Shown here piece after piece: positions 7,368 through 64,000 of a DNA stretch of 64,000 nt. The position numbers and the translations under genes were made by a program. A model generated the notes under the pieces. That model was not told where the DNA came from, searched no databases, and saw nothing but the letters and a program-made list of their open reading frames with translations. The stretch comes from Monosporascus cannonballus (Eukaryota > Ascomycota > Sordariomycetes > Xylariales). The stretch is taken from positions 124,001 through 188,000 of the forward strand of contig QJNS01000110.1 of assembly GCA_004154925.1 (NCBI GenBank). Direction: 5' to 3'. Within the stretch, counting starts at the first letter, position 1. Each line of letters starts with the position of its first letter.

Positions 7368-7991
7368 CTACCGCCAAAATCCTGACCAACCGTCTTTAAC
7401 GCGGTTAACGTCGCAGGTAATAACGGTTTCCCGTTTAAATTTAAACTTTTGGCGTTTTAATCGAAAAAAATAAACGCCTTTATTATAGCGTTTATTTTTA
7501 AAGTAAGTTGCGTTTATTTCGTTTTTATACGACGTCATTTTTTTTCTATTTTTTCCCGCTTTTTTAATTAGTTTAGTTCGTAATTTTCGAAAAATAATTA
7601 TAACTTTTTTTTTCAAAATGTTTTCCTAATAACGCAAACGTTATAACTTATTTATTTTTTTTGATATTTCCTTTTGAAATTTTCGCTATAATTCCACAAA
7701 TTCGTTTTTAATAATACGACGCTCTTTTTAAAAATAATCGCGTTCAGAATTAATATTTTCTAATAAAAATATGGCAATTATTAATCCATTATAATAACGT
7801 TAATAACGGGTATAATAATAATAATTTGGAATACTTTTCGTTATAAAACACTTAGATTTTCCGAATAAAAAATAACTGGAACAAGGTAATATTTCGAATC
7901 CAAATTTGAAAATATAAGCAGACCGGTTATTGCGAATTTGACGCTAATTTGTACGGGATTGGCGCGTTAATTTTTCTGCTCGACCCGCCAT
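7368..7991 (-). pseudogene. Antisense ORF of element A: Cys-rich plus coiled-coil protein
   Basis: A single minus-strand frame of 208 codons runs from an ATG at 7991 to a stop at 7368, with only six internal stops, all explicable as mutated Gln or Trp. It lies between the chromodomain and the 3' LTR, antisense to pol. The N-terminal half has F-G-F-E-I-L-P-C-S-S-Y and further Cys/Tyr positions up to an E-N-I motif. The second half is rich in Lys, Glu, Arg and Gln in heptad-like spacing, so probably a coiled coil. The tail reads T-V-I-T-C-D-V-N ... D-G-W-S-G-F. Frames with the same plan sit at the same place in B to K. I do not recognise the family. The preserved frame across six stops argues that it was once coding. 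Confidence 0.72.
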
Positions 7992-8087
7992 AATAAGTTA
8001 AGCAATAAAAAAAACGATTTTCAATTAGAAAAGGGAGGTACTTATCTTTTTATCTTTGGGACAAAAATCCTGAAAAAAGGAGAATAA

Positions 8088-9269: not shown

Positions 9270-9829
9270 ATGTCGAATTACGTAAGAATATTTCGTTTTT
9301 ATAAACGTATTAACGCTTTTATTTTTTTAAAATGTAATAAACCTTTTAGTTTTAAGATATCTTTTTATTTTTGCCATAAAAAAAATGTTGAAAATATAAA
9401 GTTGTTCGGGGTTTTTTAAAATATACGCGTTATATTTATTATGGCAGTTTTTATAATATTTTTAATCCTGTAAAAATTAAATATTAAAAACTTTTAGACG
9501 AAAAGAATTATTTAAAACATAAATAAAAAAAGATTTACGAAACGTTACGAACGGTTACTAATAAATTGGATCGTTTATAAAAATAAAGAGGTTATTCCGT
9601 TATCGTAATATCGAAATATTTCGTCGTAGTATTAAAGGTGTGGAAACTATGGAAGAATTCGAACGTTTCGAAAAAAAAACAAGAATAATTAGAGGTTGCT
9701 GTTATAATTACTACGTTAACGTATACCGCGCCTAATTAGCCGGATATTTTAGCTATTAAATAGTTGATTATTAATTAAAACGCGTTTATTATTGCTGATT
9801 AAAATATTTTAATAGATATTAAGCGTTAA
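9270..9829 (+). pseudogene. Antisense ORF of element B
   Basis: A plus-strand coding-like region, antisense to pol, starts ATG TCG AAT at 9270 and ends at a TAA at 9827-9829. The N-terminal M-S-x-x-V-R-I-F-R-x-x-K-R-I-N-A-F-I resembles the start of the C copy. Near 9655 the frame reads M-E-E-F-E-R-F-E-K-K, matching M-E-K-F-E-R-F-E-K-K in C, and it ends with P-D-I-L-A-I, the tail seen as P-D-I-P-A-I in C. At least one frameshift and several stops interrupt it. Function unknown. Confidence 0.6.
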
Positions 9830-21200: not shown

Positions 21201-21500
21201 ATTGGTCTATATAAAATTATTAAGAAAATCTTAGAAAATAATTATTAATTGGAATTCTTACCAAATGTTAAATTTTATTTAATTTTTTATATTTTTTTAT
21301 TCGAATTAATAATAAATATAATCAAAATATATATGGTACAAAATAACGTAAAAATAGAAAATGAATAAATATACGAAATAAAAAAATATTCGATATGCGA
21401 AAACAAAACGGATTTACCCAGTACCTAATTAAGTGGAAAAAATACCCGAATTCCGAAAATATCTGGGAACCCGCCAAAAATCTTATTAGCGCTTAACGCC
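18226..21500 (+). pseudogene. pol of element C
   Basis: The protease at about 18226-18490 resembles that of B (K-F-K-L-L-W-K-Y-K-L-E-P-Y). The RT runs about 18840-19560: F-V-L-K-N-G-K-L-R-F-V-L-N-Y-R-Q-L-N-N, and a catalytic box at 19333-19344 reading Y-L-N-D, so the first Asp is lost. The RNase H region holds a D-I-S-D-Y-A-L-S motif near 19780. The integrase core near 20490-20600 includes S-I-F-V-I-V-N-R-F-T-K in altered form. The chromodomain at about 21373-21500 reads K-I-F-D-M-R-K ... Y-L-I-K-W-K-K-Y-P-N-S-E-N-I-W-E-P and keeps its aromatic residues. Confidence 0.9.
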
Positions 21501-22056
21501 TATTAAAGAATTTTTATTAATAACGACGGACGCGTTTTAATTAAGGGTGGACCAATTAATAGCTGGGATATCGGGCTAATCGGTTACGGCCTGCGTTAAC
21601 GTGGCAGCTATAACGGCGGCCTTTAACTGTTCTTATTTTTTTTCGAAACGCTCAAATTTTTCCATCGCTTTCGCACCTTAAATATTGCTGCCAAATATTT
21701 TAATTTTACGACCACGAAGCAATTTCCGTTATTTTTATAGGCGATTTAGTTTATTTGCAGTATTACGAAGGACCTTACGAACCTGTTTTTTTTTACGTTT
21801 TAAACGGTTTTCCTTATTAAAAAGCTTTTTGTATTTAAATTCCGAAAAGCCAAATAAATCGCAAAAGTTACCGTATTACGTACAACGGGCGTATTTCCCA
21901 AAACTATGGTGTATCTTATAGAGTATGTCGACGGAACGATAACGAAAATAAAAGTTTTTTTTAAGGTATAATAAAATTAAGCAATATAATACGTTTTGTA
22001 AGGATGAAAACGTTAATACGTTTACGGGAACGGAATTTTTTAATGCGACTTGATAT
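21486..22056 (-). pseudogene. Antisense ORF of element C
   Basis: Minus-strand frame beginning near 22056 (S-S-R-I-K-K-F-R-S-R-K-R-I-N-V-F; the initiator is now ATA) and ending with L-I-G-V-K-R then TAA at 21486. The middle part is very basic (K-E-N-R-L-K-R-K-K-K-Q-V-R-K). Then comes M-E-K-F-E-R-F-E-K-K-x-E-Q-L-K-A-A-V-I-A-A-T and the tail x-P-D-I-P-A-I-N-W. It overlaps the last codons of the sense chromodomain frame, so the two genes converge and overlap. Same plan as A, B and E. No known function. Confidence 0.68.
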
Positions 22057-22760: not shown

Positions 22761-23164
22761 CGCAAAATATTAATTAATAAAGGCATTCGACATTTCGGGT
22801 CATTTTTTAACGGGCGTTAAAAAGCTTCGGAAAGCTCCTTTCGTGCTGGTAATATGGAAATCCCTATTAATCAATACCGGAAAGTCTCAGGGAAATCCTT
22901 TTTAAGGTGTTGGGTTTGTTTGGGATATTTTTATCGCGGTATGCGGTAAATAAGGTTTCAAATTGCAGGTAATGGTGTTGCGAATCTGTAGTTAGCCCGA
23001 TATATAACGTCCCGTTATTTGGAATACGGTATTGTAATTTGTAATAATGACCGGTGTTGGTACTTATATCATAATGCAGAATAAGTGTGGCTAAAGGTAG
23101 CTTTTCCTTCGGAAGATGATTGGGTTAGCTGGGCGAATAAAAAAATGTCGCCGAGAAGCTAGCG

Positions 23165-23204
23165 AAAAATTGTTGCGACTAGCGCCCTGTGTCCTTCAAG
23201 GGGA
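23165..23204 (-). repeat. Right terminal inverted repeat of the piggyBac-like element
   Basis: Reverse complement of 437-476 with two mismatches. It marks the sharp boundary between RIP-affected sequence on the left and GC-normal sequence on the right. Confidence 0.85.
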
Positions 23205-23206
23205 TA

Positions 23207-24830
23207 TTTTACACATAGGGATGATACTAGGATTAGATATATACGATAGACGGTCGGAAAGGGGAAAAGCTAGACTGCGAGGCTAGGAACTGCCCAGTTC
23301 CTACATCCGCCGTTCTAGGGTGTGATGCATTATTATAGCGACAATACTAGACCTAGAGAAACAAGAGCGCTCAATTTGGTAGACGCCACCGTCCTTGGAT
23401 TTTGGCCAATAAGTGTGTGTTCCTGTTGCGCCGTGATAATGACCCGAGTGTTTCATAGAAGCTCTATCGGAATTGCTCTTTCATATGTGAATCCATAAAT
23501 TCGTCCTGATTCGGATATCCTCGTCCAGTCGTCACGTCCCTATTAAGCCACATTAAAAGACTCTCTGTCCTCTGCTTTCACCTGGACCATCTGGCTTCGT
23601 TTCCAACTCTTCGGAAATCCATTATGCAGGTCCCGAATTGTCTGGGGCTAGTCTAAAGGGGTATTTCTAAAGGGTCCTAGCGAGTATAGAGAGGGTACTG
23701 ATGGCTCCTTATATACACTGAAATACGGCTATAGCCATGAGAAAAAGTCACCAGAGATAGCCGGGGCGGTCCCACATGGAGGCTGATCAGTTAAGGCAAA
23801 GACCTTGATATCGAGCAGTTATTGAGCCTTCGTTTCAATAGTTCGGTCACGCTTAAGCGAGGGGGAATGGCTTAAGAAATCGATTACATCAAATGGAGTA
23901 CCGAAACTCTCGTCGATATAGCTACCGATGTCATCCAGGCACTTTGGGAGACTCTGGTTGCTGGTGGTGTAATGGCGGCCCTTACATCTGTCTCAGGCGA
24001 GTGCTGCCTTTCGCGGTGGAGTGGCCCCCTACGCCACACCTCTTAAGTAATTGCTTCTAGACGTTGACGCAGACCGGATTGCGACGGAGGGTGTGATCCA
24101 CGCTGACGTAGCAGTACAGATGGCGAAAGGTGGGGAATCGGACAAGTGGCGTCGCCGTCCCAACACAACAGGACCGGAAGCTAGTCGGCATGGTACATAT
24201 AGGTATCGCCCCCCCCCACGAGAGCAGGTCCTGGGTTTCACCAATCCCCCCCGGCCCCCGCAAGCGGATACGGAAAGCAATGGTTATGGAAGCCTATCGC
24301 GGCTCCGAGACCTGTTTTCCTGTCAAAGGGGTAGAGACGCAGAGGATCACAAGAAAATCTAGAGCATTTAAGCATGTTAAGCTTGTCGCACTGTTGCGAC
24401 GTATAGCTACTCTCCTAATACCGTCAACCAGAACAATAATTCCTCAACTATTCTTAGGCCATAATGTCAATAAGGGCTACGGAAGTCCAAAAGGACCTGG
24501 CGTCGCGGCATGCTGTCATAAACGATGGTATCTCCTATGTATCTTCTGGACATCCATCATACGCTTGACCTCAGCGGCATGGCAGTTCTGACCCTTCCCA
24601 TTCAGGCTTGCATTGAGACCGGCCTGGACGCCAAACTCCGTTCGCTCTATATGGGATCCGCTCCTACTTCCACATGGCAATGCAGTGACGTATGCACGAG
24701 CGATTGAGACCTTTTAAGGGCCCTCAGCACTAAAATGTGTGGGCATTGTAAGTTCTTCAAGCGTTATACGTCCCTAGCCATACTAGGTTCCTGAAATATC
24801 CCAAACCGATTCTAGAAGCCTCGGATGAGG
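23207..24830. other. GC-normal island, left part; no gene established
   Basis: Balanced base composition with no RIP signs. The plus frame at about 23882-24047 reads T-E-T-L-V-D-I-A-T-D-V-I-Q-A-L-W-E-T-L and continues 15 residues, which looks protein-like. So does a plus frame at 24525-24704. Neither has a visible start, splice partner or family. Longer open frames around 24050-24590 overlap in three frames and look like chance products of C-rich sequence. A hairpin, aggaactgcccagttcct, sits near 23285. These may be decayed host gene fragments. Confidence 0.35.
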
Positions 24831-24833
24831 TCT

Positions 24834-25468
24834 TCATTTGTTTACTTTGAAATAGTGAGTCTCGGACTTCATCAAACCGTTTCCCATTGTACCGCTCTTC
24901 GCCAACTTCAAACTATGCTCCTCTGTTTGGCCAAGGCTTTTCAGCCGGTAATATGGCAAGATGACTTGTTTCTCAAAGAATACATGTCCGGGGCCTGCTA
25001 CTCTCTTCCCATCCTTGTAGATCTCATACCCGTAATGGGCCCTCTGTTCGGAGTCGGTCGTCGGGTTGTCAGCGTCTAGCTCATCATGGTTAGCGACCAT
25101 CTCTATCCTTTCTCTTTCCATATCCATGAAGCGTTCCACTCACCCCAGATGATCTCCAATTCAAAGAGCTTATCTGAATCTCGACTGAGTTCGAATGTTG
25201 CTCTGGCCTCTACGATTCCAGTCTGGTTGTGCTTATCAAAAGCAACGGCATCAAGGTTTTGCCTGATCCCATTCTGGAGCTCTGTCTGCGTAGCACCAGC
25301 CGAGGGGAGGTTCAGCCCTTGAACAGCTTGTAGGATTTTCTGTTGCAGAAGTTGTGCACCTTGAGAGAGACTATTGGCTTGGGCGTCTGAAGACATAGCT
25401 GCGCTTTGAAGAATACGTTGGTCAATGGCTGGAGTATTGAGCAGTTGTACGTGTTCGCGGAGGAGCAC
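24834..25468 (-). CDS. Uncharacterised protein gene, two C-terminal exons
   Basis: Exon 25144-25468 and exon 24834-25075 are joined by a 68-nt intron (25076-25143) with GTGAGT at its 5' end, GCTAAC as a branch site and CTAG at its 3' end. Splicing restores one frame across the join (E-I-I-W then D-A-D-N-P) and ends at a TGA at 24834. The first block is Gln-rich and helical-looking (L-L-Q-Q-K-I-L-Q-A-V-Q-G). The second contains Y-G-Y-E-I-Y-K-D-G-K-R and F-F-E-K-Q-V-I-L-P-Y-Y. No signal peptide or membrane segment is visible. There is no ATG at the start: a TAA lies just upstream in frame, so the frame must continue through a splice or frameshift to the blocks at 25422-25967. I do not recognise the family. 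This is the most credible host gene here. Confidence 0.6.
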
Positions 25469-25583
25469 GACGGGCCAAATGCCTTAAAAGCAAATCGCAC
25501 GTACCACTAATCATGCGCTCTCCCAGCCAATCTCTAGGTGGAACGAAGCAAAGCTGCCCAACGTTAAGGCCATCAAGGGTGCT
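25422..25583 (-). pseudogene. Upstream coding block of the same gene, frameshifted or spliced
   Basis: In another minus frame this stretch reads L-D-G-L-N-V-G-Q-L-C-F-V-P-P-R-D-W-L-G-E-R then L-L-L-R-H-L-A, with ordinary codon use. Its natural continuation is V-V-L-L-R-E-H-V-Q-L-L of the downstream exon, one frame away. No intron of credible length fits (the only GT..AG pair gives about 22 nt), so a single-base frameshift near 25455-25470 is the simpler reading. The block may begin at an AG acceptor at 25584. Confidence 0.4.
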
Positions 25584-25642
25584 CTATCACATGATCGATC
25601 TTTTCGGTTCACATCTGTCTTTCCCCACCCTCCTATTCTGAC

Positions 25643-25967
25643 TCAAATGCCTGCAAATTGACGAATGATATCCCAAGCTCCCTTTTCACCGAAGGTTAAG
25701 GTGACAGACATTACATCCACATTACGCGAAGAGGTCTCAAGCAGTGACGGTGATGATATCACATAGCGTTAGCTGATGCATTCTGGTCAACGGCAGTGCA
25801 AGCCTTGACTGCTCATTTGACGGACTTTCCCAGATCTCGATCTCGTCGTAGCCATACTTCCGCGACCTCAAAAGTTGATGTTGGTGTGCACGCTCTGTCC
25901 GGGGTTGGGCGATAGAGCCTGCCGTGCCTGGGGGACACGCAAATGGGTCTGTGTCCGTATTGAACAT
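25643..25967 (-). pseudogene. Possible N-terminal blocks of the same gene
   Basis: A minus-strand ATG at 25967 opens a 76-codon frame (M-F-N-T-D-T-D-P-F-A ... Y-G-Y-D-E-I-E-I-W-E-S-P-S) ending at 25737. A second frame at 25643-25766 reads V-M-S-V-T-L-T-F-G-E-K-G-A-W-D-I-I-R-Q-F. Both look like protein and lie on the same strand, upstream of the exons at 24834-25583. How they connect is not clear. They may be exons of one gene, or a gene with more than one frameshift. Confidence 0.35.
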
Positions 25968-26080
25968 CTGGATTTATCCTCTGCAAGAGTCCTTATGGCT
26001 AGACTCGACTTGGACGATATCGCTGTCAGAGGTTATATATATATCGTCCGTATTCTTTCATTTTAAAAGACTACTACGTC

Positions 26081-27579: not shown

Positions 27580-27977
27580 TGTTACGACCTGACAAGCCAC
27601 GGCCTCCAGGAACGGTCGTAACGGAGAAGGCCAAGAAAACCATGTGGATCAGGTCACGTGATGGATTACCAATTTACTGGTGGTGAGCCAGTGAGCCGGA
27701 TCACCAACTTACTGGTGGTAAGCCAGTGAACCGGATTACCAACTTATTGGTGGTAATCCAGTTAAAGGAGAAAGATATATATGCTTATTAATTCCATAAT
27801 TTAAATAATTTCAGTTTGCAATATTTATTAATATTAATTATTTGCAATAAGGTATTTCCAGTATTAAAAAATATAATACGATTATTATATCCATTACTTA
27901 GATTTTTACGATATTTTTATTAACATAAACTTGTCGACTTAAGGTTTAATAATTAGTTAAACCGTTTAGCCGTTATA
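27580..27977 (+). repeat. 5' LTR of element D
   Basis: 398 bp. The first 200 bp are almost free of RIP changes and GC-rich, while the inner half is strongly AT-shifted. Confidence 0.94.
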
Positions 27978-37900: not shown

Positions 37901-38268
37901 TTTAAACAAAACGACCTAGCAAAAAACTCGATTTCAAATATATCGGTCCTTATAAAATCGCCAAGAAAATCTTAGAAAATAACTATTAATTAGAACTTTT
38001 ACCAAAAGTTAAATTCTATCTAATTTTTCATATTTCCTTATTCGAATTAATAACAAATATAATTAAAGTACATACGACATAGGACAATATAAAAGTAAAA
38101 AACGAATAAATATACGAAATAAAGAAGATATTTGATATACGAAAGCAAAATGGACTTACTTAATATCTGATCAAATAGAAAAAGCACCTAAATTCCGAGA
38201 ACACCTGGGAACCTGCCAAAAACCTTACTGGCGCCTAACGCCTGTTAAAAAACTTTTATTAGCAATAA
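34960..38268 (+). pseudogene. pol of element E
   Basis: Protease at about 34960-35190. The RT has an intact Y-F-D-D box at 36035-36046 (C-Y-F-D-D-I-F-I-F-S). The integrase core is well preserved near 37225-37380: F-D-F-I-I-K-L-F-I-S, then S-I-F-V-I-V-D-R-F-T-K-F-S-Y-F-V-P. The chromodomain is at about 38100-38268 (K-I-F-D-I-R-K-Q-N-G-L ... N-S-E-N-T-W-E-P-A-K-N-L). Many Gln-to-stop changes. Confidence 0.9.
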
Positions 38269-38844
38269 CGGGCGCGTTTTAATTAATAACCGACCAATTA
38301 ATAACCGGGATATCGGGCCAGTCGATTGCGGCCTACATAAACGTAATAGCCGTAACAACAGCCTCTAATTGTTTTTATTTTTAACGTTTTTATTCTTTTA
38401 ACTTATTTAATGATTAAAATTTACGCTATACTATAATAATACCTTTCGAACAAACTAACGCTTTTTATTTACGCAAATAAATAAGACGAAAAAAAACTTT
38501 ATTTATCTTTTCTTAATATTTACGTTAAACTTTGAAATAAAACCGCTAAAACTTTAATAATTGCTTTTCGGTAAGCATTTTTTCGCGTATTAAACGTTAA
38601 CACTTACGACGAATATTTTATTAAAAAAATAAATATACCGGTACCATTAGAGGATCGACCCCGATTAATACATTCTTTATACCTTAAAACGTTTTTTAAT
38701 ATTTTATATTTTATATTTTTTAAAAAAATAATAAAAATAAAGTATAATTTCGTAACTAAATTCGTTGAAAGCTTTTACGAGGTTAACATAACGAACGGTA
38801 AAAAAACGGGGAATACGACGAATTTTAAAAATACAAAACGATAT
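38225..38844 (-). pseudogene. Antisense ORF of element E
   Basis: About 206 codons on the minus strand between the 3' LTR and the chromodomain. The first part reads F-N-E-F-S-Y-E-I-I-L-Y-F-Y-Y-F-F. After a frameshift E-N-I-R-R-K-C (38603-38617) leads into a basic helical region, R-L-I-R-E-K-M-L-T-E-K and Q-R-K-Y-Q-E-K-I-N-K. The tail is D-W-P-D-I-P-V-I-N-W and the stop is at 38225. The last 40 or so bases overlap the end of the sense chromodomain frame on the opposite strand. Aligns well with the K and A copies. Confidence 0.7.
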
Positions 38845-39312: not shown

Positions 39313-39995
39313 CAATATTATATTAATTACAAATAAAATAATTAAATAAAAAAGTTATCGATTATTTAATTAATTTATAATTTTAGTTATTACGAAAACA
39401 TTAAGACAATATTTATAAATGCAAATTTTGGTTTTACTTTAAAAATTTACAAAAAAGCGCGTAACGACGGTCGAATTAATATCAAAATAATCTTTACGTT
39501 AAAACGGTTAGGATAATTATATTAAAAAATAAAAATAGAATTGGAATTCGTACGAAATTAAATAAATAAATGTTATAACCAGAAAGGGTTAAAGGGATTA
39601 ACTTTCGAAAAGGGGGAAATAATTTTCTTCGTTATAAAAAACATTTAAATAAAATAATCTAACAAAATATTCGATTTCAAATATATTGGTTTACATAAAA
39701 TCGCTAAAAAAATCTCAAAAAACAATTGTTAATTAAAACTTCCACTAAAAGTCAAACTTCATTTAATCTTTTATATTTCTTTATTCGAATTAACAGCAAA
39801 TATAATTAAAATGCATACGGCATAAAATAACGTAAAAATAAAAAACGAATAAGCATACGAAATAAAAAAAATATTTAATATGCGAAAACAAAACGGACTT
39901 ACCTAGTCCCTAATTAAATGGAAAAAATACCCAAATTCCGAAAACACCTAGGAACCCGTTAAAAATCTTATTAGCGCCTAACGCCTATTAAAGAA
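39313..39995 (+). pseudogene. pol of element D, 3' part (IN C-terminus and chromodomain)
   Basis: Resumes the pol frame of D exactly where it stops at 32612. Contains the integrase C-terminal P-F-E-L-N-like block near 39785 and a chromodomain at about 39848-39995 (N-G-L-T-x-S-L-I-K-W-K-K-Y-P-N-S-E-N-T). Confidence 0.85.
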
Positions 39996-40535
39996 CTTTT
40001 ATTAATAACGGCGGAACCACCCGAAATAATAATATCCCAATCTACGAGATTTACAGAGGGAAACCTTTAATCCACCATATTTTAATTAATAACGTTTATT
40101 TTTCCTAAGGCCTAAACCTTAATTCCGGATTCCGATTCCAATTACGTAAAATTATTAGAATTATCTAAGGATTAAAAAGTACGATTAATAAATTTCGTAC
40201 CTTAAAATTGATAGTATTGACGCTAACGACGTATGCAAAAAAAAACGCTCAAAAGCTTCGGATAAAGATTTTTCGGCCGTTAACTTTTTTTTTTAAATTC
40301 TTTCGATTTTACGATATGGCGATTAATTATAAAAATAAGGATTCCTATCCCGTTATACGAACGACCTCGACGAACATATTCCTTATAACGAAAAACCCTA
40401 TTTATTATCTGGCAATTAAACTGCCGAATAAAAAAAATAAAATATCGCGTTAAAATCTTCGAATTTAATTAAATTAGCTAAGGCAAGTCGTTATTCGGAT
40501 TTGCGAAAACGACGTTTGGATATACCGGAAAACAT
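39996..40535 (-). pseudogene. Antisense ORF of element D, degraded
   Basis: Minus-strand ATG at 40535 (M-F-S-G-I-S-K-R-R-F-R-K-S-E), with F-E-D-F-N-A-I-F-Y-F-F-Y. After a frameshift near 40414 it reads C-Q-I-I-N-R-V-F-R-Y-K-E-Y-V-R-R-G, aligning with C-K-I-I-K-N-V-F-K-Y-K-A-Y-V-K-R-N of element K. The coiled-coil half is not clearly readable and the end is unknown. Confidence 0.5.
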
Positions 40536-40609
40536 ATTAAAGGTATGTAAAAAAATTTTACCAGAAGAAAAGAAATCTTAAGGATAAGATTTTGAGAAAA
40601 GGGAAATCG

Positions 40610-41007
40610 TATTACGACCTGACAAATTACGGCCTTTAAGAACGGTCGTAACGGAAAAGGCCAAAAAAACCATGTAAATCAGGTTACGTAATGGATCACC
40701 AACTTACTGGTGGTAAGCCAGTAAGCCGGATTACCAACTTACTGGTGATAAACCAATAAGCCGGATTACTAATTTACTGGTGGTAATCCAGCTAAAGGAA
40801 AAAGATATATATGTTTATTAATTCCATAATCTAGATAACTTTAGCTTGTAATATTTATTAATACTAATTATTTGCAATAAGGTATTTCCGGTATTAAGAG
40901 ATATAATACGATTACTGTATCTATTGCTCAGATTCCCACGATACTCCTGCCAACATAAACCCGTCGACTTAAGGTTTAATAGTTGGTTAAACCCCCTAGC
41001 TGTCACA
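40610..41007 (+). repeat. 3' LTR of element D
   Basis: 398 bp. The outer (right) 90 bp are unmutated; the inner start tattacgacctgacaaatta shows RIP transitions relative to the 5' copy. Confidence 0.94.
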
Positions 41008-41421
41008 CTAACGGTCTTGGCTCCTGAAAACGGTCGGGATCCTGAAAAGCCAGACCCCGACCCAGCCAAGAAGTCACGTAACTGGCTCAAAGGACTCAAA
41101 GGGCCTGATTGGTCAAAAAGGGCTTAAGCCAGTTGAACACCAAAAGAGGCTCAAAGGAGCTCAAGAAGACTCAACCAGAAAGGTGTCGTTAAGCCGTAAT
41201 AAGCACCTTAAGCCAGAAAAAGGATATATACGCTCATTATTTCCATAATCTAGATAAATTTCAGCCTGCAATAACAATTCGTTACCCAAAACACGCTTGG
41301 AATTACGAAACGTAACACGATTACTGTATCTATTGCTCAGATTCCCACGATACTCCTGCCAACCTAAACCCGTACGACTAAGGTTTAATAGTTGGTTAAA
41401 CCCCCTAGCCGTCACAAAAAA

Positions 41422-41615
41422 CGCTTTTGTTTAGCATTTTTCTTAATAAAATAACCAATTTCTTTCGTTTATACAGTCAGTTTAAATCGAATAATTTTGA
41501 TATTCTAAATATATGCTAAATATAAGCTAATACACGTATAGGAAATTTTTCGAATCTTTTAAATTAAAGTTGGAATTAATACGGCTAAATTTAAATATGG
41601 GAAATAGGCGACCGC
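41422..41615. other. AT-rich interval, no gene
   Basis: No frame, repeat end or motif recognised between solo LTR F and the paired inverted units. Confidence 0.4.
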
Positions 41616-41926
41616 AACGCCCTCATGGCTGCGACAGTACAACTACCGGTCGTATTATCGTATACCGGGCTTCCCTAGTATATCTTGTATGAGAGGAGCC
41701 CGTCCAGCAATTGTTTTGGCCGTACGGGCTGTCGTTCTTGCGTCGCGGCCATGAGAAGGTTAGGGTCAGCCAAGTCCGGAACGCCCTCATATCTGTGACG
41801 CAGCAACCATAACGCGTACGGTCAAAAACATGGCTGGACGGGCTTCTCCCATACTCAATTACCCTTGGAAGGCCCATGGATAAGTGTTATATGCAGTGGT
41901 TACGTTATCGCAGCTATGAGGGCGTT
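41616..41926. mobile_element. Two MITE-like units in inverted orientation
   Basis: Unit 1 (41616-41761, 146 bp) and unit 2 (41780-41926, 147 bp) are inverted copies of each other, separated by 18 bp, so the whole locus is a long imperfect palindrome. Each unit also has its own terminal repeats: it starts aacgccctcat and ends in a reverse complement form (catgagaaggtt or atgagggcgtt). GC-rich and without RIP, unlike its surroundings. Alternative: one foldback element. Open frames here are by-products of the palindrome. Confidence 0.6.
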
Positions 41927-42165
41927 CCGGATTGGAAGTGGTGCTAATTGAGAATATTTGCCTTTTTCTTTAATATCGTAGCCAAATTTGCCCCGATTTA
42001 AAAGTTTTATATATCGTTAAAAAGCTTTTTAACACTTTATATAACAACGATTTTCTTTATTCTTTCACTATTTTTTTTTATTATTTTAATGGCGAGTTTT
42101 AAAAGAAGTTTTAAAAAAATTATATGAAACGGTGTTAATTAAGGCCAAAAAATCACAACTTGCTA

Positions 42166-44422: not shown

Positions 44423-44980
44423 ATGTTTGATTACGTTATTAAATCTCGTTATCACGATTCGTCTTTTACTCTCTGTCGTTAAAATCTGCTTTTTATTTTT
44501 AACGTATTTAATTTGAAAATTGGGGCGTATTTTTTATACTTTGTAAAAGCTTAAAAATACGAAATAATAAAAAACTTTTCTAAATATAAGGCTTATAAAA
44601 GACGTATTTACATTTGTAATAAAACAGATTTTGGTTATTTTTATTAAGAAATATTCGCAAAAAATCGTTTTTTTAAGTTTTAAAAACGTTATTAATAAAA
44701 AGAATAAACGGACTTATCGTACGCTTAATATGTCTTCATGAATAAAATTCTTTTTTTTTTGGTTTAAGAGCATTAAAATAATATAACGAAAATTATAATC
44801 TCTAAAAAAATTAAAAAAGTAAAAACGATAAAAATAAACTTCTGCTGATATTTGCGCCGTTGTATTAATTTCTTTTACGATTCGATCGAGCGGTTTCTTA
44901 CGGTTATTTTAGATACCGTAAATTGAAAAATTATTATTTTTGATAATCACGTTATTACTAATAAAAGCCTTTTAATTAAC
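44423..44980 (+). pseudogene. Antisense ORF of element G
   Basis: Plus strand, ATG at 44423, M-F-D-Y-V-I-K-S-R then N-L-L-F-I-F-N-V-F-N-L-K-I-G and Y-E-I-I-K-N-F-S-K-Y-K-A-Y-K-R-R. These align residue by residue with element K (N-L-L-F-I-F-D-D-F-N-F-E-I-M and C-K-I-I-K-N-V-F-K-Y-K-A-Y-V-K-R) with no gap over about 60 codons. The coiled-coil half is degraded. The end is approximate. Confidence 0.62.
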
Positions 44981-44994
44981 GTTAGATATTTATA

Positions 44995-55914: not shown

Positions 55915-56461
55915 ATGCGGTTATATTATTAAAACCTTTATTTAAAACCAATTTTTGACCATTTGTGGTTAAAATCTATTTTTTATTTTCAATGAATTGA
56001 ACTTTAAAGTTATACCATGTTTCTTATATTTCTTAAATGTTTTCAAAATAAAAGGCAATGCGAAATATTTTTAAATGAAAAGCTTAGATAAAATGTAACT
56101 AGTTTTGTAATAAAAAAGGTATCTCGATAGTTTCAATGAAAAATATATACGCCAAAAACTAATAATTTGAATATAAAAGAATATTTTGAAAGAAGCCTTT
56201 TCTTAAATATTAAAAAGATTATTAATCAAAAATAACCGAAGTTATTACGCGCTTCATTAGTTTTCGTAAACAAAAAACTTGCTTTTCGTATTATAACTAT
56301 TAAAATAATATAACGGATATTATAATCCTTAAAAAAGCTAAAAAGAAAACAGCAAAAATAGATTTTTATAAAGGCCGTTGTAAGCACCTTAATCTTCCTT
56401 TCTAAATTATTTAATTAATTTTCTACGGTTATTTTAGAAATTATAAATTAAGATTCTATTA
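55915..56461 (+). pseudogene. Antisense ORF of element I, fragment
   Basis: Plus strand near 55975-56030 reads L-F-F-I-F-N-E-L-N-F-K-V-I-P-C-F-L-Y-F, aligning with L-L-F-I-F-D-D-F-N-F-E-I-M-P-Y-F of element K; one Cys is retained. Cut by element J. Confidence 0.5.
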
Positions 56462-63245: not shown

Positions 63246-63644
63246 TGTGACGGCTTGGCGGTTTAACCAACTATTAAACCTTAAGTCGACGGGTTTATGT
63301 TAACAGGAGTATCGTGGGAATCTGAACAATAAATACAATAATCGTATTACGTTTCTTAATATCAAGGGTGCAAAAGCGTATTGCAAACGATTAATATTAA
63401 TAAGTGTTATAAGCTGAAACTATCTAAACTATAGAAATAATAAGCGTATATATCCTAATTTTTTTATTACTGCTTATCTTTGCTTAGTAAAACCTTGCTA
63501 AACGATTGCTTAATGCTATTTAGTCGTACTTAGTTAAACTTAGTTAAGACCCGTTAAGTACCGATTACGTGATCCTGAACTAGCGTAAATTTTGTAATCT
63601 TAGCTAAACCGTTTTTGCAAGCCTAGCTGGCTTAGGTTATAACA
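63246..63644 (-). repeat. 3' LTR of element K
   Basis: The outer (left) end tgtgacggcttggcggtttaa is unmutated, as in B. It contains iterated cttagttaaacttagttaag motifs near 63528. Confidence 0.9.
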
Positions 63645-63715
63645 TAATCTCCTTTTTTCCCAAATCTTGTTCTTAAGATTTTTCTTTTCCTTTTGGTAAG
63701 CCTTTTCCTCTTAAA

Positions 63716-64000
63716 ATGTCGGCCCGCGTTATTAAAAATTGTCGGCAGGTTTTTTCGTCTATTACGTAACGTTAAAATCTGCTATTTATCTTTGACGATT
63801 TTAATTTTGAAATTATGCCGTATTTCTCATGCTTTTCCAAAGGCTGGGAATGTAAAATAATAAAAAACGTTTTCAAATATAAGGCGTATGTTAAACGTAA
63901 TTATTTTTGTGATAATAACGGTATTCCCTTATTTTCTTTAGAAAACATTCGTACCGAAAATTAACGTTTAAAACGCGAAAAGGTATTTGCGGAAAAGCGT
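63716..64000 (+). pseudogene. Antisense ORF of element K, best-preserved N-terminus
   Basis: ATG at 63716 opens a frame of 95 codons to the window edge with only three stops, all TAA where CAA (Gln) fits. It reads M-S-A-R-V-I-K-N-C-R-Q, then L-L-F-I-F-D-D-F-N-F-E-I-M-P-Y-F, C-K-I-I-K-N-V-F-K-Y-K-A-Y-V-K-R, F-C-D-N-N-G-I-P-L-F-S and E-N-I-R-T-E-N. Restoring Tyr and Phe positions to Cys or Ser in thought gives a pattern of spaced cysteines like a small zinc-binding domain, but that is inference. It is antisense to pol of K. The C-terminal half lies outside the window. Confidence 0.7.

What the first reader, a model, noticed from the sequence alone, without database searches (positions are those of the whole stretch)
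63716..64000. A conserved antisense gene at the 3' end of many chromovirus elements
In A, B, C, D, E, G, I, J and K the interval between the 3' LTR and the chromodomain holds a coding frame on the strand opposite gag-pol. The copies share an N-terminal block (F-x-F-E-I and spaced Cys/Tyr), a C/Y-x-I-I-K-N ... K-Y-K-A-Y block, an E-N-I motif, a charged coiled-coil stretch and, in several, a P-D-I-P tail. Stops sit where Gln or Trp fit, so RIP destroyed a once open frame. The N-terminal pattern suggests a Zn-binding domain, hence possibly a nucleic-acid-binding accessory protein or a regulator of the element made from its own promoter in the 3' LTR region. I know of no characterised protein of this kind.
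Basis: partly seen in the sequence, partly recalled or inferred. Interest (0 to 1): 0.88.

Follow-up and report, generated by a model that had tools for sequence, protein, structure and literature searches.

The report
Antisense gene in a fungal retrotransposon
Dead copies of a fungal jumping element still show that it once carried a real extra gene written backwards at its end, for a small protein with a zinc-binding-type pattern of cysteines; such backward genes are known in related elements but what they do is not.

Summary
From 63716 (+), 72 bases past the inner end of an LTR and opposite gag-pol, runs a frame of about 200 codons; its first 95 lie in the window. In 53 distinct copies from this genome a test blind to RIP (transversions only) shows purifying selection on this frame: tv-only Ka/Ks 0.25, other five frames 0.60-1.73. 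The third-position excess sits on internal branches of the copy tree (23/15/66) and is not significant on terminal ones (67/73/87): selection while the element moved, then decay. Of 447 premature stops, 438 stand where another copy has a RIP-source codon. The frame overlaps the end of pol tail-to-tail by 62 nt. Six C/Y columns have Zn(2)-Cys(6) spacing, C-x2-C-x6-C-x8-C-x2-C-x6-C; a long helix follows. Yet 0 of 15 copies scanned match Pfam Zn_clus, while six host domains with two cysteines knocked out still do, so it is not filed there. The kind is known: Boty of Botrytis carries an antisense gene, brtn, in the same place; homology could not be tested. Nuclear nucleic-acid-binding accessory or regulator: inference.

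The parts
63246..63643 (.). LTR next to the antisense gene (ends set by eye on TG..CA, inner end about 63643); partner LTR at L009 7628-8015, 84.8% identical
63644..63715 (+). leader between LTR and ATG; pyrimidine-rich on + (the polypurine tract of the sense strand, by position and composition, my reading)
   Evidence: sequence
63716..64000 (+). first 95 codons of the antisense frame (ATG at 63716); rest lies outside the window, to about C22:188300
63821..63910 (+). the six C/Y codons of the Zn(2)-Cys(6)-spaced module (codons 35-64 in alignment numbering)
44423..44986 (+). diverged damaged copy of the frame; LTR end at about 43970
55973..56409 (+). diverged damaged copy; LTR end at about 55490
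9392..9826 (+). diverged damaged copy (weakest match, E 1.6e-4); LTR end at about 8781
38228..38844 (-). diverged damaged copy; LTR end at about 39305
21489..21998 (-). diverged damaged copy; LTR end at about 22484
39974..40465 (-). diverged damaged copy; LTR end at about 41007
7524..7937 (-). far-diverged version of the antisense frame; no LTR match found beside it

Best explanation
An accessory gene of a Ty3/Gypsy chromovirus of this fungus, on the strand opposite gag-pol, between the U3 end of the 3' LTR and the end of pol, with which it overlaps tail-to-tail by 62 nt. It codes for about 200 residues: a short N-terminal part, a six-cysteine module with Zn(2)-Cys(6) spacing, a long charged helix and a variable tail. 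Shown: the frame, its selection while the element was mobile, its decay of RIP type, the position, the cysteine spacing. Inferred: the module binds zinc and nucleic acid, the helix makes a dimer, the gene is read from the U3 side of the 3' LTR, and the protein acts in the nucleus on the element's own LTR or nucleic acid, tuning its expression or transposition, in the manner of HBZ of HTLV-1.
For: RIP-blind selection on this frame and strand; third-position excess on internal branches, not significant on terminal ones; 438 of 447 stops of RIP type; conserved start and stop columns; 17 of 41 distinct indels multiples of 3, more than in the three neighbouring stretches; exactly six Cys-type columns in codons 1-199 of the frame, all six in Zn2C6 spacing, such a set in no other frame of the 2.3 kb searched, and in 0 of 2,000,000 random draws of seven columns; the same spacing by eye in L073, L074, L075 and a second copy in L015; a 54-residue helix, block pLDDT 81-91 over its first 50 residues, in a natural stop-free stretch; chromodomain, RT, RNase H and a Tf2-type SH3 domain on the opposite strand of sister copies; pol stop column 52 of 53 inside the frame.
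Against: 0 of 15 copies matched Zn_clus (8, 7; an eighth copy with four Cys, L043, was not scanned), though six of six host domains with two cysteines changed to tyrosine still match at 8e-8 to 5e-7 (these were the six best of the 111 host matches, so a generous control). One far version has x7 in place of x6 in one loop. Heptad periodicity not significant (p 0.10-0.26 in four helix windows). The N-terminal model is poor (pLDDT 61, pTM 0.30) and draws helices through the cysteine region, not a zinc cluster (made from copies that have lost cysteines). Few CGG/CCG sites kept in LTR and leader (two CCG columns at 40% or more, no CGG). No expression data.
Confidence: 0.6

Rival explanations
1. The protein is a structural or transport accessory (nucleic-acid chaperone, nuclear import or integration-site helper) and not a transcription regulator.
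For: Zinc modules also serve as nucleic-acid chaperones (general knowledge); PMC7264820 section 7 discusses nuclear entry in connection with such genes.
Against: Spacing is that of a Zn(2)-Cys(6) cluster rather than a CCHC knuckle (both motifs recalled); the antisense strand suggests expression separate from gag-pol.
Confidence: 0.25
2. What is selected is the antisense RNA (silencing or double-stranded RNA control), and the frame is a by-product.
For: PMC7264820 section 8 raises dsRNA control for antisense transcripts in such elements.
Against: Third-position excess and Ka/Ks 0.25 on one frame with RIP-type stops are coding signatures.
Confidence: 0.05
3. Shadow of pol: the frame is open only because it lies opposite a coding frame.
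For: The last 62 nt do overlap pol; the frame on the other strand that shares third positions has a lowered ratio, 0.60.
Against: About 540 of about 600 nt lie beyond the pol stop column (stop in 52 of 53); the mirror frame is explained by shared third positions and is weaker than the antisense frame.
Confidence: 0.02
4. A recently captured host gene carried by one element lineage.
For: The fungus has many Zn(2)-Cys(6) domains (111 matches, a lower bound).
Against: Searches with four different versions each ran to the limit of about 150 scored matches, with partly overlapping lists; 0 of 15 copies match Zn_clus. An old capture is not excluded.
Confidence: 0.08

Closest known systems
brtn of Boty-like elements (Botrytis cinerea; Zhao et al. 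2011, title seen in reference lists only)
   Same: Antisense gene between pol and 3' LTR (PMC7264820 section 5) of a fungal element whose gag-pol has a chromodomain (PMC4227169 passage); called an additional ORF in PMC8365987 (passage)
   Different: Sequence of BRTN not held, so homology, length and cysteines not compared; the passages read mention no zinc module in BRTN
Antisense aORFs of plant Gypsy elements (Grande gene23, RIRE2, Retand TRP28)
   Same: Same place and orientation; DNA binding suspected for TRP28 (PMC11963269 abstract and passages)
   Different: Different protein domains; plant lineages
HBZ of HTLV-1
   Same: Antisense regulator gene read from the 3' LTR, with a DNA-binding-type (bZIP) domain (PMC6950816 abstract and passages)
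   Different: bZIP, not a six-cysteine module; a retrovirus; no relationship claimed
Fungal Zn(2)-Cys(6) transcription factors (PF00172)
   Same: Spacing of six cysteines, with a long helix after it
   Different: Profile not matched; aromatic/small residues where the family is basic after the second cysteine (my reading, family motif recalled)

Membership tests
Antisense accessory gene of LTR elements (aORF-3R, the brtn kind) | Between pol and 3' LTR, opposite gag-pol | tested here: met
   with a 62-nt overlap of pol
Antisense accessory gene of LTR elements (aORF-3R, the brtn kind) | Conserved coding frame in most copies | tested here: met
   tested on the copies that carry it, the share of all elements that carry it was not counted
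brtn proper | Sequence homology to BRTN | not testable with these tools
   paper not held; protein database switched off
Zn(2)-Cys(6) cluster PF00172 | C-x2-C-x6-C-x5-12-C-x2-C-x6-8-C (motif recalled) | tested here: met
   as C/Y columns; best copies keep 4 of 6 Cys (8 of 53 copies)
Zn(2)-Cys(6) cluster PF00172 | Profile match | tested here: not met
   0 of 15 copies; damaged host controls pass, 6 of 6
Zn(2)-Cys(6) cluster PF00172 | Zinc and DNA binding | not testable with these tools
   bench work
Chromovirus (Ty3/Gypsy with chromodomain) | Chromodomain at the end of pol | tested here: met
   PF00385 E 3.6e-8 in an L018 stretch; RT, RNase H and Tf2-type SH3 domains in stretches of sister copies; not tested on the window's own copy L009

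The most novel reading that the evidence does not exclude
Fungal chromoviruses carry their own zinc-cluster-type regulator, antisense and made from the 3' LTR, a convergent counterpart of HBZ, kept under selection across diverged versions of the element.
Probability: 0.35. Interest if true: 0.75.

Novelty: new member of a known kind. Interest (0 to 1): 0.5.

Why it matters
Antisense genes at the 3' end of LTR elements have been known for years without a function (PMC7264820). A cysteine array of zinc-cluster spacing, strong selection and a long helix give a concrete, testable hypothesis for this fungal one. The RIP-blind test (RY coding, internal against terminal branches) shows how a gene can be recognised from dead copies only.

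Tried and rejected
Chance frame, pol shadow and RNA-only selection: rejected. Profile search of A1 against solved structures: 12 weak matches, best E 0.04, 11 named adenosine deaminase and one organophosphate hydrolase: taken as noise. Pfam on the frames gave only weak matches at E 0.02-0.22 (PDU_like, DUF5125, DUF4798, a YDR124W-type helical domain) or none; NCBIfam best was PduM, E 0.0043, in 3 of 8 members: taken as chance in AT-rich helical sequence, not pursued. Heptad test not significant. Fold search of the C-terminal helix model: 2 matches, E 7 and 9.4. IMG/VR scan: no relative, which says little about fungi. Bacterial promoter scan around the LTR: consensus not meant for fungi, not used. 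The organism was not identified; no named fungal collection was at hand.

Full report
What is there. The window is 64 kb of an unnamed 88.8 Mb assembly in 618 contigs, mostly AT-rich and full of damaged LTR elements. At 63716 (+), 72 bases after an LTR (63246 to about 63643; partner in L009 at 7628-8015), begins a frame of about 200 codons with 3 stops in the 95 codons inside the window. In sister copies the opposite strand holds pieces of reverse transcriptase, RNase H, a Tf2-type integrase SH3 domain and a chromodomain: of 10 natural stop-free stretches submitted, 4 matched a Pfam family over its cut-off, 2 gave only weak unrelated matches and 4 gave none. So the element is a chromovirus and the frame is antisense. 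The window's own copy was not scanned for these domains.

Copies. A protein search of the own genome gave 151 matches (150 of 2322 candidates scored); every listed row has inside stops. Searches with three other versions gave 150 matches each, the scoring limit; the lists overlap in part, and with the two 75-residue queries many rows show no stop, as expected for so short a stretch. I took 53 distinct copies from the loci held (loci L001-L008 left out as repeats of others, further duplicates dropped by sequence).

Is it a gene? RIP changes C to T and G to A, so purine/pyrimidine state is untouched by it. In codons 1-157 RY heterozygosity is 0.029, 0.031, 0.092 at the three codon positions. Transversion-only Ka/Ks is 0.254 (0.197-0.342), against 1.732, 1.403, 1.243, 1.483 and 0.601 in the other five frames; 0.601 is the frame on the other strand that shares third positions. 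The tail (codons 158-200) gives 0.557 (0.349-0.940). As a positive control the pol frame at 1050-1950 gives 0.573; the six frames of the LTR give 0.64-1.17 and those of the stretch 600-900 give 0.73-1.43. That last stretch, labelled spacer in my scripts, turned out to be pol (integrase end and chromodomain), so it is a positive control that failed; single-base indels of the reference copy at about 695, 713 and 968 shift its frame and are the likely reason. On a tree of the copies, transversions at positions 1/2/3 of the antisense frame are 23/15/66 on internal branches (p=4e-10) and 67/73/87 on terminal ones (p=0.25); the contrast is significant (Fisher p=3e-5). In pol (600-1400) the third-position share also falls from internal (61 of 113) to terminal branches (391 of 959; p=0.009), but there the terminal excess stays significant, which plain neutral decay does not explain. 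Distinct indels that keep the frame: 17 of 41 in the antisense frame, 4 of 54, 13 of 76 and 18 of 106 in the neighbouring stretches. Stops: 438 of 447 stand in columns where another copy has a codon that RIP turns into a stop. Start column ATG 24, ATA 27, other 2; stop column TAA 49, TGA 1, other 3 of 53.

Where it ends. Read in the chromodomain frame, pol runs on to a column that is a stop in 52 of 53 copies, at 538-540 nt of the antisense frame, whose own stop is at 597-599: a tail-to-tail overlap of 62 nt.

The protein. Columns that are Cys or Tyr in at least 90% of copies with at least one Cys: six between codons 1 and 199, at 35, 38, 45, 54, 57, 64, with Cys in 1, 32, 32, 18, 7 and 29 of 53 copies. 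TGY to TAY is what RIP does on the other strand. The six follow C-x2-C-x6-C-x8-C-x2-C-x6-C; no other frame over 2.3 kb has such a set, and 0 of 2,000,000 random draws of seven columns of 200 did. By eye the same spacing holds in L073, L074, L075 and the second copy in L015; the far version at window 7937-7524 has x7 in one loop. No copy keeps more than four of the six (8 of 53 keep four, 4 of 53 none). Against membership in PF00172: 0 of 15 copies matched it, while six of six host domains with the first and fifth cysteine changed to tyrosine still matched. The six were the best of 111 host matches, and RIP also alters other residues, so the control is generous; still, the module is at best an unusual relative. 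A natural stop-free stretch of codons 105-198 (L016) is modelled as one helix of 54 residues and then mostly low confidence; the N-terminal model is poor and shows no zinc cluster; the heptad test is not significant.

How it may work. A small protein with a zinc-type module and a long helix, written against the element's own transcript and beginning beside the U3 end of the 3' LTR, is most simply a nuclear nucleic-acid-binding accessory factor or regulator. HBZ of HTLV-1 is an antisense product of a retrovirus, made from the 3' LTR, that represses sense transcription from the 5' LTR (PMC6950816, abstract and passages). Regulation, nuclear location, zinc and the promoter are inference here.

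What is known. Boty-like elements of Botrytis carry an antisense gene, brtn (Zhao et al. 2011, seen only as a title in the reference lists of PMC8365987, PMC7264820 and PMC4227169). PMC7264820 (abstract, passages, sections 5, 7, 8) puts it between pol and the 3' LTR and says of this class that function is not known and no clear similarity to other proteins had been described. PMC5987419 (one passage) reports a Monilinia transcript with similarity to truncated Pol and, at 63% identity, to BRTN. PMC3248453, a survey of fungal LTR elements, does not use the word antisense in its main text (passages only). That a zinc module of this kind has not been reported rests on paper searches in open-licence papers only; the 2011 paper itself may say more. 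I also recall, from no call, undamaged fungal hypothetical proteins with a similar cysteine layout.

Verdict. Observation confirmed strongly; interpretation partly supported; a new member of a known kind with a new, testable structural lead.

Noticed in passing
window 63260-63280, 40973-40993, 41382-41402: A short inverted repeat (GGTTTAA, 7 bases, TTAAACC) near the outer end of three LTRs.
   Followed up: no
window 40693-40791 and 27663-27762: Two LTRs (40600-41007 and 27582-27963, 85% identical) hold an internal imperfect repeat of about 29 bases, 70 bases apart.
   Followed up: no
window about 41611-41930: GC-richer island with complementary ends (about CGCCCTCATGGCTGCGA and CGCAGCTATGAGGGCG), perhaps a fold-back element little touched by RIP (sequence).
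   Followed up: no
window 23001-26000: GC 0.46-0.51 in an AT-rich setting: likely host gene island.
   Followed up: no
alignment of 53 copies, 600-1400 nt of antisense coordinates: pol shows third-position transversion excess on terminal branches too (291/391/277), unlike codons 1-157 of the antisense frame; reason unknown (tree or alignment error, or some copies younger than the tree shows).
   Followed up: partly
antisense frame codons 158-179: Terminal-branch counts in the tail are also uneven (23/21/38, p=0.04), so the internal/terminal contrast rests on codons 1-157.
   Followed up: no
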